The notes beneath the pieces are model-generated. The model did not search any database. It worked only from the letters and a program-made list of their open reading frames with translations, and was not told the origin of the DNA. A stretch of 26,900 bases of DNA. Source: Saccoglossus kowalevskii (lineage: Eukaryota > Hemichordata > Enteropneusta > Harrimaniidae). Within the stretch, counting starts at the first letter, position 1, and each line of letters starts with the position of its first letter. The stretch spans positions 1,506,890 to 1,533,789 of the forward strand of contig NW_003140811.1 in NCBI RefSeq assembly GCF_000003605.2, read 5' to 3'. Positions 1,558 to 17,435 of this stretch are shown here, piece by piece. Made by a program: the position numbers and the translations under genes.

Positions 1558-4500
1558 ATGCCTGTGTGTGAAAAATGCAAGAAAACCATCACGTACGTAA
1601 ACACAGCAATCGGTCTCATTGTATGATGCTTGTCAACACGGTTATCATGGTGTTTGGACCATGACGTCATGATATTACCCTTTCAATTGCCACTAAAAAC
1701 TGATGTCGCCTTCCACGATCATAGTCAAGTTCGATCTGCTTAATTTCATGAAGGATGTTGATTTACATTCTAAATTCTGTCTTTTGGGTTCAAAATTGAC
1801 ATACCATTTTGGCGGAGTAAATCTGCCGCGACCGGGTCGAAGATCACCTTTAATGAGGTGTTACTTTTCAATTTATTTCAATAATTTTCAATATATGTTT
1901 CGCATTTCAATTTTGTTTTGTATCGCCCACCTCGTTTCTTAACCTTTCCTTTTATTATGTTTTTTTATGGTTAAAACAGTGGCACTATTGTGACCGCCTT
2001 GGACAAAGAGTGGCATGCCGAGTGCTTTAGATGTGCCGAGTGCCGTTGTCAATTGCGAGGAAAAAGTTTCTTTACCACCAAAGATGGTCGTGTCGTCTGC
2101 GAGACCGATTACAAGATATTTGAAGCCGCCCGCTGTGCCAAGTGCTATGAGTCTGTCACCGGGGTGAGTTGTTTTGACGGGGACGATATTAGTTTGTTGT
2201 TAATATCACAACATTAACCGAATATTTTCATATACGGTATAAGAGTATATAGGAACAATAAATTACACCCCTCTTAGTAGGATTATTCAGTGGCCAGAAA
2301 TGTATTTAGACCGCTCTAGTTTAATAATCAAACCTTGATATGGAATATACCATTATTTCTGCTGGGGAGGAAAATGAAGATACGAAACATCGGAGAACGC
2401 GTTTTGTGCGGCTTTGATGAAGGGGGGGGGGGCGGAAATGCAACCCAATCTAGGAGGAAAAAAATGGTATGTCCAGACACACAGTTTCAACAACATTCTA
2501 ACCTAGCCCATTCCAGTCAGACATAATGAATCACTCCGAAGTTTAATTTGGATCACGTGTGGGTGATCTTTCGTTTAGTTTTACAGTAATGGTGAGAGGG
2601 ATGTGAAGGCATGCAATAATTACCCAGTTATTTCTGTTATTCTCTATGATTGGCACGATCATCTTCTCAAGCAGCGATCATTACCCGTATCAGTCATCTA
2701 GAAAAACTATATTATTTTGCGCGCCGCGTGATTCTGATACTGTACACGGCTTATCGTCTGCTCATTTTTTTTTTCTTCACGCAGGAGATTGTGACCGCAT
2801 TGGACAAGAAGTGGCACCCGCATTGCTTTGTATGCAACCATTGCCGTAAACCATTCGGCGGAGATGGCTTTATGGTGAAAGACGATAAACCATACTGTAA
2901 GAAAGGTGGGTCATAGTTCAAAATAGTTATTGACAGACAGCCGATAAATTACTAAATAGTTCACAGCATTGAACCTCGGCCGTATGCAGGTGGTAACATT
3001 TTTCATTTACAATGGGTCCAAGTGTTTGCTCAAGATGGTCTTTAGAGTCACTCACTGACATTTGCTAAATCATCTCTTAAGCGAATAGTTGACAAATATC
3101 ACTTGATTTATTATTTAATTTATGTGTTCTAACTAAATAACGAGACATGTGTTTTTGCATTTTGTTTTCTATTTTAATTCATATCATCACTGAGCAAAAA
3201 AAACGTTTGGATCATGGTTTGGTGAACACACATATGCACACGTACAAACAACACCCAGATAGCTAGAAAATGAATAATGACAAAACATCTCTTTCCATGC
3301 ACCTATTTGAATGCAGTTACCATAACAACACGCCATGTTACAAAACATAGCTCCATGCGTTTACTCATTTGGTACCACATAAATAGTTTTGGTTCGATGT
3401 TACATGGATTTAAAATAAGAACAAATAACAGAAAACACCGTGACCGCTTGTGTTCGTTTAATACGTGTATGTGAATACTGCCGCGTTACCAAGTGAATAT
3501 TATGATATAAGTGCCATGTGACTTTATATGACAAAACACTCCTAACGACTGCATTCCAGGGCCCAGGAGAAATTGGAGTTTTGCCAATTGGGTCACAATC
3601 ATTAAATGAAGTTTAAATAAATGACTACGAGTAAATAAATAATGCAATCATATTTGATAAATAAATAACTATTTTTGTGTTTTTGTGGCAGTGTTTCAGT
3701 GCAACAGAAAAAACATGTGTGCGTTCATATATATATGTATGTATGTAAATACTAAAATGAATTGTTAAATTGCGATAAGTAGCACCCGGTCCGTTGCCAG
3801 GATTACGAGTGTATTTAATGAAGTTTAGATGACATACATCTTTCACGCCATTTATTATTTTGCTTCTCAAATACATTTATTTGTTCACGAATATGCAGAT
3901 TACCAAGTGCTGTTCTGTGGTGGTAAAGACGTGAAGGTAGTCTCCTCGGACATCTGCTATGGATGTGACCAGAAGCTTGGATCTAAATGGGTCGAAGCCA
4001 TGAACCAGAACTGGCATCCAGACTGCTTCGTGTGCCAGGTAACATAATGATGGTTGACTTGTTATATCGCCCTCTACCATTGACATGTGTTCCATGCATG
4101 GCCAACCTGCGTTGCTAATGTTGCGCGGGGCGTCATATCATGCTTTTAGTATACCTCAGTTCTCGTAGTTGATTAACACACCCACATTCTTCAGCAAAGC
4201 CCATTAATTTTATGCTCTCGACGTCTCCATATGCAGGAGTGCAGGCAACCATTCCATGGAAACAACTTTTTCATAGTTTATGGGAAACCATACTGCAGCA
4301 AACATCCATCTAACCCACCTCCGCCAGATTTCCGGTAATCTGCATGATGCGTTACCATGGGAACAGCATGCATTCAACAGTACGCATTTTGAATCTTTCA
4401 ACAATAAAACAAGTTTCTGTTTAACTCTAATTCTATTCACGTAATAATACGTTATACAATTCTTTAGCTTTTACATTATGATCACGCCCATACACCGAAG

Positions 4501-4650
4501 TATACTAACAATATTCATTCATTAACCAATATGAACTCATGCGTGTCTATTTTTCATTTCCATTTTATTCCACAGAAATGCAGAGAAAAGCTGTCCGGTG
4601 AAAAATTTTACAACGAAAGTGGCAAGCCTGTCTGCACCAAATGTGGTTAA
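1558..4650 (+). CDS. LIM gene 1: three-LIM-domain adaptor protein, spliced, two C-terminal isoforms
   Basis: Coding exons are 1558-1592, 1980-2163, 2785-2905, 3899-4038, then 4237-4338 (isoform a, 193 aa) or 4576-4650 (isoform b, 184 aa). All introns are GT..AG and the frame is continuous. The start is supported by an in-frame TGA 15 nt upstream of the ATG in the same exon. LIM1 has ligands C4, C7, H24, C27, C30, C33, C52, D55. LIM2 has C64, C67, H84, C87, C90, C93, C111, D114. LIM3 has C133, C136, H153, C156, C159, C162, C180 and H183 or C183. Almost nothing lies outside the LIM domains. By family knowledge LIM domains bind zinc and act as protein-protein adaptors, often at actin structures or the nucleus. 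The LIM3 motif WVEAMNQNWHPDCF resembles the last LIM of Enigma/ZASP proteins, but no PDZ domain is present. A paxillin-like or LIM-only origin is also possible. The structure is certain; the exact family is not. Confidence 0.93.
4237..4338 (+). CDS. LIM gene 1 terminal exon 5a, encodes LIM3 second half with C-x2-H ending
   Basis: The acceptor is ATGCAG before 4237. The exon opens in phase 0, matching the donor after 4038, and encodes 33 residues then TAA at 4336-4338. It begins E-C-R-Q-P-F, so it supplies the sixth zinc ligand (C162), and Y-C-S-K-H supplies the last pair, C180 and H183. A short tail PSNPPPPDFR follows. A Cys-x2-His closing pair resembles that of the last LIM in Enigma/ZASP proteins. 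The proline run is absent from the other isoform and from LIM gene 2. The exon has its own poly(A) signal at 4403-4408, so it behaves as a true last exon. Confidence 0.85.
   Translation, partial: ECRQPFHGNNFFIVYGKPYCSKHPSNPPPPDFR
4403..4408 (+). terminator. poly(A) signal for LIM gene 1 isoform a
   Basis: AATAAA lies 65 nt after the exon 5a stop and before the acceptor of exon 5b, followed by T-rich and GT-containing sequence. It would end a very short 3' UTR inside what is an intron for isoform b. Confidence 0.65.
4576..4650 (+). CDS. LIM gene 1 terminal exon 5b, encodes LIM3 second half with C-x2-C ending
   Basis: The acceptor is TTCCACAG before 4576. The exon opens in phase 0, compatible with the same donor after 4038 that serves exon 5a, and encodes 24 residues then TAA. 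It reads K-C-R-E-K-L-S-G-E-K-F-Y and ends V-C-T-K-C-G, giving ligands C162, C180 and C183 and a bare C-terminus. It is closer in plan to the last exon of LIM gene 2 (Y-C-E-K-C-I-N-N) than exon 5a is. Exon 5a ends in a stop, so joining 5a to 5b would not add residues. The two exons are therefore alternatives at the protein level. Confidence 0.85.
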   Translation, partial: KCREKLSGEKFYNESGKPVCTKCG

Positions 4651-4877
4651 ATCGACAATGACACCGACTCGAAATTTACAACCCAATTCCAGTCCATAGC
4701 TCGTAGATATGTATATTAGTTAAGCCTGGGTAGCCTGGGATTACGTTGACACATGCGCCCTCGTCAGGCGAATCGTGCACATGGTTAAGGGTTCAGTGTC
4801 CACAGAGGGTTCAAGTTGCTAGGTTAATATTGTTAGTAGGTAATTATTAGTAGCAATAATCAGATTCAATCTGGTTC

Positions 4878-9234: not shown

Positions 9235-9545
9235 TCAACTTATAGCATTTAAAACAGACGTCTTAAAAGAAGATAGACTCGTAAAAATGTCTACTGAACC
9301 AGCAATATAAATACAATTTGAAAAGTCAAGACAACGAGGGATAAAACAATATTTTCTGAGATTACTGTGACAAAGAGGTAGTTTGAAGGGATATACGGAG
9401 CGGAGATTTCTGGAGAGAGCATGAAAAGGAATGTTGTAAATAGTGTAGGGAGAATCAAAAATATTATTAAGGCATTTATACAAAAAGACGGAGTCAAGGA
9501 AATTTCTACGATTCTCAAGTGACGATAAATTATAACGAAGGCTTA
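9235..9545 (-). mobile_element. LINE (non-LTR retrotransposon) remnant, C-terminal tail of reverse transcriptase ORF
   Basis: Translated on the minus strand, the segment reads with motifs typical of the end of Jockey/CR1-type RT proteins: LSSLENRRNFLDSVFLYKC, then NLRSVYPFKLPLCHSNLRKY, then a final TSLSSFKTSVL. The order and spacing match the thumb and C-terminal region found after the polymerase motifs. The polymerase core, endonuclease and other parts are absent, and an in-frame stop lies just upstream on the coding strand, so this is a 3' fragment. A TTTA-rich repeat lies directly beyond the 3' side, as is common for LINE tails. Confidence 0.65.
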
Positions 9546-12485
9546 ATTCATGATACTGTGATGATCCAAAACTTTAGTTGGACCCGCTCAACTTTACCAA
9601 CCAGGTATTTTTGATGTGGTAGTATATTATTGTGATATGTAAAGGCGAGGTCCGTTTTTGTTACCTATTAACTCATCGACTGGCATCTGACCTCCAAATC
9701 TATACAGTCGCTACCTTGAGGCTATGCTATCGATGATTGTAACCACCCTTGTCACGTCAACATTAATGAGTCTACAACTGATAACAGTGGTATGTTATAT
9801 TATTGCCAAGCAAACCCAACGTTATTGACACGAATGTGTGATCATGTATGCGCATGTCTGAATACCTTTGTTGGCCGGCAGGAACGTTTGAACGATGAAA
9901 AGCCGCGTCGCAGATAATACTAGTAACTGAAACAATAAAACTCATCGACGAATTCGTTCATTTCATATGGATTGCCTAGAAAGTGGTTAGTAATATAGGA
10001 ATATGTGTTATGCCTAAACACACATTTTTCTGTTTACGATTTTTTATCATGAGTAATATTATTGATTATTTATCAGTATCAGTGATTCTCTCGTTATTTA
10101 CAACTTTTAACTTTTGATCTGTAATTATGTATTGTCTTTCATAAAAGTGTATACATTTGTCGGAGTTGGTAAATAAAAAAAAAAAAAAACGTGGTGTCAT
10201 GTATTGACCTTCGGATAAGCGAATCGCCCCCTCCAAACGAGTTGGAGGATGGGTTAGATCTAGATCTGGGTCAAGTGGTCACATCCTAAACCTGTCAATA
10301 TCAAGTAAACCGTACATGGTTGACACAACTCAACAACTAACTGACCTAAATTTGCTCGTTTCACATTTCAATGCGTCATGGAAGTTATACGCGTCATACG
10401 TGCGTGTGTGTATGAGGCGCAACACTGGACAATTGGGTCTATGTAAATTACATTTGCTGATATTTATGGGTGAGGCTATTCTAATTTCAAGCAATTTTTT
10501 TTCACTGAATACTGTGCTGGAAAATATTAGAATAATTTTAGAAACTTGATATTTGTTCTGTATGTTATGTGATAATCTCTGACTTCGTATTTTGACATAT
10601 ACACGTATTAATAATAGTTTTACACTTCGAATTATTTCATTTATTGGACTAGTTCTCCTTTTTTGACAATGTCGTTAGGAATAATGTTGTTGACAGTTCT
10701 TATTTTTGGTAGTGTATGGTGCCCAATGAAAATGTATTTTGAGGAGAAATTGAGAATTATGGAACAACTCTTCAAATCTGCAGTGGGTACCAGTACGTGT
10801 GTATCACACTGGCATTCGCGGCATTGGCCTCTCCTTCACATGCCGCAACTCTACGCCATGATTAGCATTTTGCACACCACACCATTTTACACTAACTTGT
10901 CATGGAGGACGCTACCTTCACGTCCAGGGGTTGGTTCCTGTGGTGTGTTTTTTGCACTCGTCACCAAACTCCCACCTTGTTCTTAGCAAGTGTACAAATA
11001 CAAGAACTTTTAAAGCAGGCCCACCTGTTGCATTGACCGAGCACCTGGGCAAGAAGAAGCATCTCCTGAAAAAAAAATAGGCGCGGCTACCGTTAGATTC
11101 ATTCAGGTGAGTATACCATACTGCAGTATCGATACACTCACAGTGTAAACGTCATACACAAAATGAGTATAGCGAATAGCGTGGTGTCATCTGTTGACCT
11201 GTATGTTCATTGTAAATGTGACGTGTGAGTAGCAGGTATTAAATTAACAATACGAACGTACACCCTCCACAAAGGGTGTGTTGTAACGTAACGATCATGG
11301 TTGTGCCCCCTTGTAAGAAGATACATTCATTTAGACACGTCGTAGTCTGTGATTTTGCGGCACCAAGGAGAACGGGTATTTTGGGCAGAGTGGCGTCTCC
11401 GTCGTTTGCTTGGATGGTGGAAAGCAGAGTAATAACAGATATTCAAGTTAAAAACGCTACACCCGGACACACTAGATTCTCAAACCAGTACTTTCACTGT
11501 ATAATTTGTGATCAAACAGACAAACCAAAAACAATTCCACACGTTTTACACTCAGGGCCGCAAAACACGGCATCGGGAAGGTATGTCTCCTGGGATAGTC
11601 GGTACACAAGTACGGTATCAAACACACACAGTTCACATTGCAGCCATTTTTACTAAATCAACATACCACAGACAAACAAACATGTTTCGACAAACATGGA
11701 CGAAGACAAAAAATGGTACATATTTAATATTCAATTCTATTTTTATGAAGCGAATTTTGTGACCACACCCACCCACCGCGCGGCGAGCCCTGGCAAGTCA
11801 ACAAATGCTAGTATCACTACTCATATTGGCATTCGGGAAGTACTCGACTTTTATCGCATAATAATAAATATAACGCGGGTTGTATGGTTTTTATCAGTCA
11901 CTAAGCAGCGATGGAGAAAACAATCACACGTCAGTTTCGTTGGTAACTGCGTTGAATGACATTCTGATATGATATGCATTTAATATTATTACATATGTTT
12001 CCATCAGCATATCCATGTCTGTCAATGCCATATGCACTGCAACCGAAATATTCTACCGATGTGAATATGTTCTTGTCAGACTACGTCGCTTGGCACCAAA
12101 TGTAAGGTTACATTGCAATATGTCAACAGACTCTGTGTGGTTGTGATACTCTCGCGTGAACTCACTTTACGCTGATTGGCTGTTTTGGCTGATAAGTAAT
12201 CGGTGCAAAGAACTCCGACAACCCCAGTATACTTTGCAATGACTTGTACCGGTGACTCACCAACGTTTAACCCCACGGTATACCATCCATGGCAACAGGT
12301 GGCGGCAATGTCGGATTAAAAATGGGGTGTTGTGTCAAATGGGGTCGCGCAACCCCCCGCGTTGAATTAGTCAAATGATGCTACAACTACTAGTATTTAC
12401 GCATTTACTTATCAAATAAGAAAAGTTTTCGGAGACTGACAGCTGGGGGGGGGGGTTTAAAAACATACCAAGCTTAATAAGCATA
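9546..12485. other. intergenic, nothing coding recognised
   Basis: Several open frames of 80 to 126 codons occur at 10316-10549, 10663-10986 and 11276-11656, but none has a recognisable domain or a paired splice structure. A strong donor-like string ATTCAG|GTGAGT ends at 11106 and could close a non-coding first exon of LIM gene 2, giving an intron of about 2.8 kb. This is speculative. A poly(A) stretch lies near 10175 and an 11-nt G run at 12445-12455. Confidence 0.5.
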
Positions 12486-13904: not shown

Positions 13905-15215
13905 ATGGCAGTCTGTGCGAAGTGCAAGAAGGACATCACGTGAGTAAATATAAAAACAAAGTAATTTACGCACTTCACCTTCCGAGCGACTCGAACCCAA
14001 TGACCTCTGTTGCATAGAAAAACGTTTCTATGATTTATTATTTTCATTTGAACCTTTTCAGTTCTACTACGATTACCGCATTGGATCAGAAGTGGCACCC
14101 AGAATGCTTCACGTGCAGTGAATGCAAAGAGGAATTGAGAGGCAAGACCTTCTTTCAAGGCAAAGACGGACAACCGTTGTGCGATAAAGACTATAAGAAA
14201 CTTGAGGCCGCCAGATGTGAAGCCTGCAAGCAACCAGTAGTTGGTGTAAGTAATATTTCATTGCCTCGTCAGTTCTGCCGTTCGTGCACTCTTAAGTATT
14301 TGACCCTGATTTTTAATATTTTTTGAATTTGTCTGTGTTATTCGCCTTATTTAGGAGATCGTGTCCGCTTTAGGAGGGAAATGGCACCCAAAGTGCTTTG
14401 TCTGCACTGAATGCAAGAAGTCCTTCAAAGATGGCAGCTTCAGTGTGAACGAAGGCAAACCCTACTGCAAGAAAGGTGAGGCACATTGTAAAAATAGTGC
14501 TACATCCGGGGTATATCGCGAAGCACGCAAATGAGAACGACGAGCGTAGTTATGTCAGTCTATCCATACGCCTACTCCAGTCCGTTTTCATTCCGAGGAA
14601 ATGTACAATATTTGCTGGATCACATATCAACACCATAACTTGTGATGTCAAGATTTATTGTCATCGTCATCATCACTTTAACACGAAGACGGCAATGTAA
14701 ACGATTCAACTTGCACTTTCACACAAAAACGAACAATTTATCATTTTTGCAGATTATGAGAAGAAGTTTCTAGGCGGTAAAAAGAAGCCTGAAAAGTGCA
14801 AGGGTTGCAAGGACAAGATTGAGACTCAATGGGTGGAAGCCATGGGGCATACATGGCACCCTGGATGCTTCGCTTGCAAGGTGAGTGCAAAATCAATGTC
14901 GATTGTCGACCGCTGAGGGCAGAATACCCAGAGCCTGAACCGAGAATTATAGTTACTAATTGGAGCCTGAATTCCGGCCACGTAGCGTCCATCCGCATCG
15001 CTCACCTCCCATCGAAAATCATGTATTTATAATTCTGGGTAGTCATGATAAGAAAGGGAACAGACAAACAACAGTTTTTCAACCTTTTTTTTACAATGTA
15101 TACTCATTTTTTTAATTTAATTTATATTTTTTAGGGGTGTAAACTTCCTCTGCAAGCTGGCTCATTCTACAAGAAAGACGACAAGCCTTACTGCGAAAAA
15201 TGCATCAATAATTAA
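13905..15215 (+). CDS. LIM gene 2: three-LIM-domain adaptor protein, spliced
   Basis: Coding exons are 13905-13939, 14062-14245, 14355-14475, 14753-14880 and 15135-15215, with GT..AG introns, giving 182 aa. LIM1 ligands are C4, C7, H24, C27, C30, C33, C52, D55. LIM2 ligands are C64, C67, H84, C87, C90, C93, C111, D114. LIM3 ligands are C129, C132, H149, C152, C155, C158, C176, C179. A lysine-rich linker (GGKKKPEK, about residues 121-128) separates LIM2 from LIM3. Only 5 nt separate the acceptor at 13899 from the ATG, so a non-coding first exon lies upstream. The first three coding exons match those of LIM gene 1 in length and all four intron phases match, so the genes are tandem duplicates. 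I found only one terminal exon here. Known LIM arrays of this kind are cytoskeletal or nuclear adaptors; the specific partner cannot be told from sequence. Confidence 0.94.
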
Positions 15216-16879: not shown

Positions 16880-17435
16880 GAGTTGGAAATCTGGGTACAG
16901 ATGCTGGTTCACTCATCATGGTAGAGTTAAAGTCTGTAAACAAAAATGGCAGTGACATATTGATGTGTCGTTGTTGTAAAAAAGGGAATGTCGTTTTGGC
17001 AGAAAACACGAACATCCGACATGGCTGTGGGGGGGGGGGCATCTTTACTATAAGTGCACGAATAAAAAATGTAACTCCGTGACTGACATTTTTCCTGTTT
17101 CAAAAAAGAGTGAACATTCTTTTGATGTGAATCATAAGTTGGTGATCGCGGCTCGTGGCTTTGGAAAGGGTCGTCGCGCAATGCGTAAATTTAGTAGCTA
17201 TATGGGATTACCGCCTCCTCTATCTGGAACCACATTCAGAGAAAACACTCGGAAAGTTTTAGACGTTGCTAAAAGACTATTAGAGCAAGAATTTCAAGAT
17301 GCCGCCGATGAAATAAGAAAACTCAAAACAGAATTGGCAGACGATAGTGGCAACACCGATGAAAATCCAGTGGATATAGCGGTTTCTGTCGACGGGTCAT
17401 GGAATATGAATACCAATATTTACTATATGGGGTAG
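16880..17435 (+). pseudogene. Mutator-like transposase-domain gene fragment (DNA transposon relic)
   Basis: The main frame 17079-17435 contains FDVNHKLVIAARGFGKGRRA, SSYMGLPPPLSGTTF and a final DIAVSVDGSW. The sequence just before it reads HLYYKCTNKKC. This order matches the Mutator-like transposase domain found in many invertebrate genomes, in which a zinc-binding region precedes an FDVN segment, a PPP segment and a (S/C)DGTW motif. Upstream, MCRCCKKGNV in the next frame would supply the first cysteines. The two parts are separated by a run of 11 G at 17029-17039 that shifts the frame. The protein stops about 10 residues after DGSW, so the catalytic C-terminal half is missing. It is a plain DNA-transposon or domesticated-fragment relic, and its own ends were not identified. 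Confidence 0.7.

What the first reader, a model, noticed from the sequence alone, without database searches (positions are those of the whole stretch)
3899..4650. Two alternative last exons rebuild the second half of LIM3 with different final zinc ligands
The donor after 4038 is in phase 0, and both acceptors (before 4237 and before 4576) continue that frame, each giving a complete LIM3. Exon 5a ends C-x2-H with a PSNPPPPDFR tail; exon 5b ends C-x2-C with no tail. The zinc-binding residues themselves are chosen by splicing, which would change the partner surface of the third LIM without touching LIM1 and LIM2.
Basis: partly seen in the sequence, partly recalled or inferred. Interest (0 to 1): 0.72.

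Follow-up and report, generated by a model that had tools for sequence, protein, structure and literature searches.

The report
LIM gene with two alternative endings
A small animal gene for a three-LIM zinc-finger protein carries two intact, interchangeable last exons that each complete the third zinc-binding domain in a slightly different way; this is probably real alternative splicing of a modest kind, not a new mechanism.

Summary
Observation confirmed. Gene 1 (ATG 1558) has exons 1558-1592, 1980-2163, 2785-2905, 3899-4038 and two possible last exons, 4237-4338 (5a) and 4576-4650 (5b). Both follow an AG acceptor in phase 0 and both complete LIM3 (Pfam 53.4 and 51.1 bits, cut-off 22.9). A scan for acceptor + half-LIM + stop finds three places in the window: 5a, 5b and the last exon of a tandem paralogue. 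The 572-Mb eukaryotic source genome shows two more paralogues. In all three paralogues one last exon was found, ending C-x2-C, so 5b is probably the ancestral ending and 5a (C-x2-H, tail PSNPPPPDFR) a gain of gene 1. Neutral decay would rarely leave either exon intact, but codon positions show only weak constraint on 5b. Three of four ligands of LIM3's second finger come from the variable exon; only the last changes, and Cys and His are both usual there. No transcript or other species could be examined. A new variant of a known kind: alternative last exons that retune a terminal zinc finger.

The parts
1558..1592 (+). Gene 1, first coding exon (MPVCEKCKKTIT), phase 2 donor; an in-frame TGA lies just upstream, so the protein is LIM-only
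1980..2163 (+). Gene 1 exon 2: rest of LIM1 and start of LIM2
   Evidence: Pfam LIM
2785..2905 (+). Gene 1 exon 3: rest of LIM2
3899..4038 (+). Gene 1 exon 4: linker and first part of LIM3 (C133, C136, H153, C156, C159); phase 0 donor gtaaca
   Evidence: one match in the genome
4237..4338 (+). Alternative last exon 5a: ECRQPFHGNNFFIVYGKPYCSKHPSNPPPPDFR, ends C-x2-H plus tail, stop TAA 4336-4338
   Evidence: 4200-4700 has one match in the genome
4403..4408 (+). AATAAA 65 nt after the 5a stop (weak evidence)
4576..4650 (+). Alternative last exon 5b: KCREKLSGEKFYNESGKPVCTKCG, ends C-x2-C, stop TAA
4878..4883 (+). AATAAA 228 nt after the 5b stop (weak evidence)
13905..15215 (+). Gene 2, tandem paralogue with the same five-exon layout (13905-13939, 14062-14245, 14355-14475, 14753-14880, 15135-15215); one last exon found, ends C-x2-C (KPYCEKCINN)

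Best explanation
Gene 1 makes two three-LIM, LIM-only adaptor proteins from one pre-mRNA. Exon 4 is spliced either to 5a, with cleavage and polyadenylation before 5b, or past 5a to 5b. Each choice supplies three of the four zinc ligands of LIM3's second finger, so both isoforms can form a complete LIM3. They differ in the exposed face of that finger, in the last ligand (His or Cys) and in a ten-residue proline-rich tail. 5b continues the ancestral C-x2-C ending; 5a was added on the gene 1 lineage and kept. Shown here: the reading frames, splice-site consensus, both LIM3 completions, and one C-x2-C ending in each of three paralogues. Inferred: that both junctions are used, that the choice is regulated, that it alters partner binding, and the order of gain.
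For: Both exons in phase 0 with AG acceptors and complete LIM3. The window scan hits only last exons, 3 against 0.075 expected per shuffled strand; the same scan on contig C1052 finds the last exons of genes 3 and 4 and nothing else in 35,001 bases, of which 10,071 are N. The phase 0 intron before the last exon is shared by genes 1-4. 5a and 5b are both intact at 9 of 23 identity; in a simulation a neutral copy keeps acceptor, frame and ligands with probability about 0.005-0.006 at 0.5 substitutions per site, while 13 of 23 third positions differ between them. 5a against the three paralogue exons shows a third-position excess (7,12,17; 11,7,16; 12,8,18 differences at positions 1,2,3). No credible half-LIM between 5a and 5b could pair with 5b (chance-level hits only). 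The distal acceptor has the richer pyrimidine tract (0.81 against 0.69; real acceptors here range 0.56-1.00), weakly in line with a proximal exon that is skipped at times.
Against: No transcript, protein or second species was seen. Codon positions give only weak or no sign of constraint on 5b: differences at positions 1,2,3 are 9,12,11 against gene 2, 9,10,15 against gene 3 and 10,10,15 against gene 4, where genes 2-4 among themselves give 5,5,16; 6,4,15; 4,1,12. Both endings are more diverged from gene 2 (8-9 of 23 identical) than the second halves of LIM1 (13) and LIM2 (12) are, which may mean relaxed constraint. Third positions are near saturation and the exons short. Three of three paralogues show no second ending. 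The AATAAA sites are close to chance expectation.
Confidence: 0.67

Rival explanations
1. Only 5a is used; 5b is the old ancestral last exon, now bypassed and still intact because the change is recent.
For: 5a comes first, so it can capture the splice. 5b has drifted far from the other paralogues' last exons (8-9 of 23 identical, where they share 13-17 of 23 among themselves), and its changes show little or no third-position excess.
Against: 5b keeps its frame, three ligands, KP-C core and the better pyrimidine tract. It has no in-frame stop; keeping acceptor, frame and ligands falls to 0.09 at 0.2 and 0.03 at 0.3 neutral substitutions per site.
Confidence: 0.18
2. Only 5b is used; 5a is a half-LIM exon copied from another LIM gene or from LIM2, spliced in as noise or not at all.
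For: 5a has no counterpart in the three paralogues. It scores nearer to the family's LIM2 halves (61-70) than to its last exons (39-52) by BLOSUM62 sums.
Against: 5a is intact with an in-phase acceptor, shows a third-position excess and shares only 7-11 of 23 residues with the eight other half-LIMs compared, so it is not a fresh copy. Its DNA has no second match in the genome.
Confidence: 0.1
3. 5a is sometimes an internal exon, leaving by a possible donor CCG|gtaatc after 4334, just before its stop, and joining 5b.
For: This GT matches the donor consensus at 6 of 9 places; the eight donors of genes 1 and 2 match at 6-9, one of them also at 6. The joined frame runs on from 5a for 40 residues before a stop.
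Against: The joined frame reads 5b out of its LIM frame, so it leaves the intact LIM reading of 5b unexplained.
Confidence: 0.03

Closest known systems
FHL1A / FHL1B / FHL1C (human FHL1; passages of PMC3203871)
   Same: A LIM-only gene whose splicing changes the C-terminal end; FHL1B and FHL1C gain a new binding site there.
   Different: FHL1B and FHL1C lose LIM domains and gain an RBP-J-binding end. Here LIM number is kept and the last LIM is rebuilt with another half.
[quoted passage not shown]
   Same: Mutually exclusive terminal exons give the same protein different zinc finger domains.
   Different: There each terminal exon encodes a zinc finger domain of its own; here one zinc-binding domain is split between the constant and the variable exon, and it is a LIM.
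Paxillin (best solved match, 7qb0, E 4.3e-25, over LIM2-LIM3 of the query)
   Same: Best sequence match; the second LIM of that chain (LIM3 by recall) ends C-x2-H like 5a (alignment).
   Different: Three LIM domains, not four, and no N-terminal region for LD motifs: the first coding exon starts in LIM1 with an in-frame stop upstream.
ENH/ZASP (ALP/Enigma) splice forms (passages of PMC9751615)
   Same: LIM proteins with developmentally regulated splice forms.
   Different: The forms in those passages differ by having or lacking the LIM domains; no PDZ here.

Membership tests
LIM domain proteins (PF00412) | LIM profile above the curated cut-off, eight zinc ligands per domain | tested here: met
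   158.4 and 154.9 bits for the two isoforms, three stretches each; LIM3 alone 53.4 (5a) and 51.1 (5b) against 22.9; all eight ligands present by motif
Alternative last exons | Two 3' terminal exons in the phase of one shared donor, each with a stop | tested here: met
Alternative last exons | Both junctions and both 3' ends seen in RNA | not testable with these tools
   no transcript data; AATAAA sites only
Paxillin class (PXN) | Four C-terminal LIM domains and N-terminal LD motifs (definition from PMC3305314 passages) | tested here: not met
   three LIM domains, 193 or 184 aa, in-frame stop before the ATG
Enigma class | PDZ domain with C-terminal LIM domains (passages) | tested here: not met
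   no PDZ in the predicted protein; LIM is the only family over cut-off in Pfam
[quoted passage not shown]) | tested here: not met
   three complete LIM domains

The most novel reading that the evidence does not exclude
Within one lineage, a gained half-LIM exon gave a LIM-only adaptor a splice switch that exchanges the second zinc finger of its terminal LIM, ligand type and tail included, so that one gene covers two adaptor specificities under tissue-specific control (two TGCATG, RBFOX-like, sites at 4095 and 4341 flank 5a).
Probability: 0.28. Interest if true: 0.5.

Novelty: new variant of a known kind. Interest (0 to 1): 0.32.

Why it matters
If both forms are made, this is a compact natural case in which half of one zinc-binding domain is exchanged while the other half and the rest of the protein stay fixed. 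That would let one ask directly which face of a LIM domain sets its partners, and how a His or Cys eighth ligand affects stability. The one-ending paralogues serve as built-in controls for when and how the second ending arose.

Tried and rejected
Relatives elsewhere: scans of viral contigs and genome contigs with the 193-aa isoform gave nothing (no match; 17 pattern matches, none a relative).

A haplotype copy, which would have given a direct decay test, was sought with the exon 4 region and the 5a-5b region: each has one match in the assembly.

Source of 5a: half-exon searches of solved structures gave E of 1 or more for 5a and 0.39 or more for 5b. In the 42 loci held (193,456 bases with overlaps), tblastn of 5a at E <= 0.05 finds, besides genes 1, 2 and 4, one half-LIM in L036/L039 (36% identity) and one chance-like stretch in L015; its best match other than itself is gene 1's own LIM2 half, 52% over 21 residues. 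One search looked only at frames with a first LIM half and does not bear on this. The half-LIM tree is poorly supported: 5b with the paralogues' last exons 72%, branches next to 5a 30-34%. The genome searches with 5a alone and with 5b alone did not complete.

Splicing-factor motifs: seven motif sets were tried after the fact; the RBFOX-like ones looked enriched around 5a (2 TGCATG in 537 nt, 2.9% of windows as rich; 3 GCATG, 1.0%); not corrected for the number tried. TGCATG over the whole window is at chance level (18 found, 19.2 expected). A hint only.

Literature: nine searches. Judged from listed titles and starts of abstracts, none describes alternative last exons that each complete one LIM domain; three lists were cut (12 of 21, 15 of 139, 8 of 669), and subscription journals are mostly not held. 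Passages, not whole texts, were read of five papers. Structure prediction was not used, because its rule admits only proteins read without change from the DNA and these are spliced.

Full report
What is there. The window is part of a 572-Mb eukaryotic assembly (contig C3160, 1506890-1533789). Gene 1 encodes a LIM-only protein with three LIM domains. Its coding exons are 1558-1592, 1980-2163, 2785-2905 and 3899-4038, followed by 4237-4338 (5a) or 4576-4650 (5b); every junction is GT-AG. An in-frame TGA lies upstream of the ATG in the same exon, so no other domain precedes LIM1. With 5a the protein has 193 residues, with 5b 184.

The two endings. Exon 4 carries five of the eight LIM3 ligands (C133, C136, H153, C156, C159). 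The last exon carries the other three: C162, C180 and residue 183, which is His in 5a and Cys in 5b. Pfam scores both LIM3 forms far above its cut-off (53.4 and 51.1 bits against 22.9). Solved LIM domains aligned to LIM3 show both endings: a paxillin LIM ends YCEVH and a PINCH1 LIM ends VCKKC. PMC3305314 (passages) states that this place is usually Cys, Asp or His. So the ligand swap is real but ordinary as chemistry. The two endings differ at 14 of 23 aligned residues, and 5a adds PSNPPPPDFR.

Chance and decay. A scan of both strands for an acceptor followed in phase 0 by x-C-x14-22-C-x2-[CHD], at most 20 more residues and a stop finds 5a, 5b and the last exon of gene 2, and nothing else; shuffled sequence gives 0.075 per strand. 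The pattern was drawn up after seeing the exons. Reading exon 4 into the intron stops after two codons, so a last exon is needed. Under neutral change either exon would keep acceptor, frame and ligands with probability 0.09-0.10 at 0.2, 0.03-0.04 at 0.3 and 0.005-0.006 at 0.5 substitutions per site, while 13 of 23 third positions differ between 5a and 5b. This favours selection on both for most of the time since they parted.

Results that cut the other way. Differences at codon positions 1, 2, 3 among the last exons of genes 2-4 are 5,5,16; 6,4,15; 4,1,12, the mark of purifying selection. For 5a against those three they are 7,12,17; 11,7,16; 12,8,18, still with an excess at position 3. For 5b they are 9,12,11; 9,10,15; 10,10,15, a weak excess or none. 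Both endings are also less like gene 2 (8-9 of 23 identical) than are the second halves of LIM1 (13) and LIM2 (12). Constraint on 5b in particular is therefore not well shown, and a recent loss of its use cannot be excluded.

Paralogues. Gene 2 (13905-15215) has the same exon layout and one last exon, ending C-x2-C. A whole-genome protein search, which scores only its best 34 candidates, finds the close family in the window and at two places on contig C1052, called genes 3 and 4 here. In both one last exon was found, after a phase 0 intron at the same place, ending C-x2-C (NPYCGDC, DPYCEKC). The two long N stretches of the C1052 stretch (34201-35452 and 51182-60000) lie upstream of genes 4 and 3, not behind their last exons; the start of their LIM1 was not found. 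The last exons of genes 2-4 share 13-17 of 23 residues; 5b shares 8-9 with them and 5a 7-8. In an unrooted tree of half-LIMs 5b joins the paralogues' last exons (bootstrap 72), while 5a lies among the LIM2 halves without support. The simplest reading is that C-x2-C is ancestral, 5b is its descendant, and 5a is a gain of gene 1; loss of a 5a-like exon in the three others is possible.

How it most likely works. Two 3' terminal exons compete for one donor. Choosing 5a, the nearer exon with the poorer pyrimidine tract (0.69 against 0.81), ends the message early; skipping it gives 5b. AATAAA follows both stops, at 65 and 228 nt, with chance probabilities of 0.09 and 0.28. RBFOX-like TGCATG sites at 4095 and 4341 flank 5a, a hint found after seven motif sets were tried. 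Usage, regulation and partner change are inference: no RNA was available.

Compared with the known. Splicing that changes LIM protein ends is known, as in FHL1, and so are mutually exclusive terminal exons with different zinc finger domains, as in fruitless. What is less usual is that the split runs through one LIM domain and both choices restore it. By sequence the nearest solved protein is paxillin, but the four-LIM and LD-motif definition of that class is not met, nor are those of Enigma or FHL. From recall only, not from a call: Drosophila has a three-LIM, LIM-only product of the paxillin locus (PDLP), and LIMK2b has an incomplete first LIM; of the 12 papers listed (of 21) in a search for the former none bears that name.

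Verdict. Observation confirmed; interpretation partly supported. A plausible, modest splice switch in an animal LIM-only gene, untested at the RNA level.

Noticed in passing
window 13905-15215: Tandem paralogue of gene 1 with the same exon layout; one last exon found, ending C-x2-C.
   Followed up: yes
L011 about 6868-5938 and L010 about 8468-5798 (contig C1052, minus strand): Two further paralogues of the same three-LIM family, last exons 18 kb apart on another contig; the start of their LIM1 was not found, and long N stretches lie upstream of both.
   Followed up: partly
window 16980-17435: Open frame matching the Pfam Mutator-like transposase (PF20700, E 1.2e-17), apparently a partial mobile element.
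   Followed up: partly
window 9235-9573, minus strand: 112-aa open frame that looks, by recall, like the C-terminal end of a LINE reverse transcriptase; no Pfam match at E <= 1.
   Followed up: partly
window 4095-4100 and 4341-4346: Two TGCATG sites flanking exon 5a; RBFOX-like by recalled motif.
   Followed up: partly
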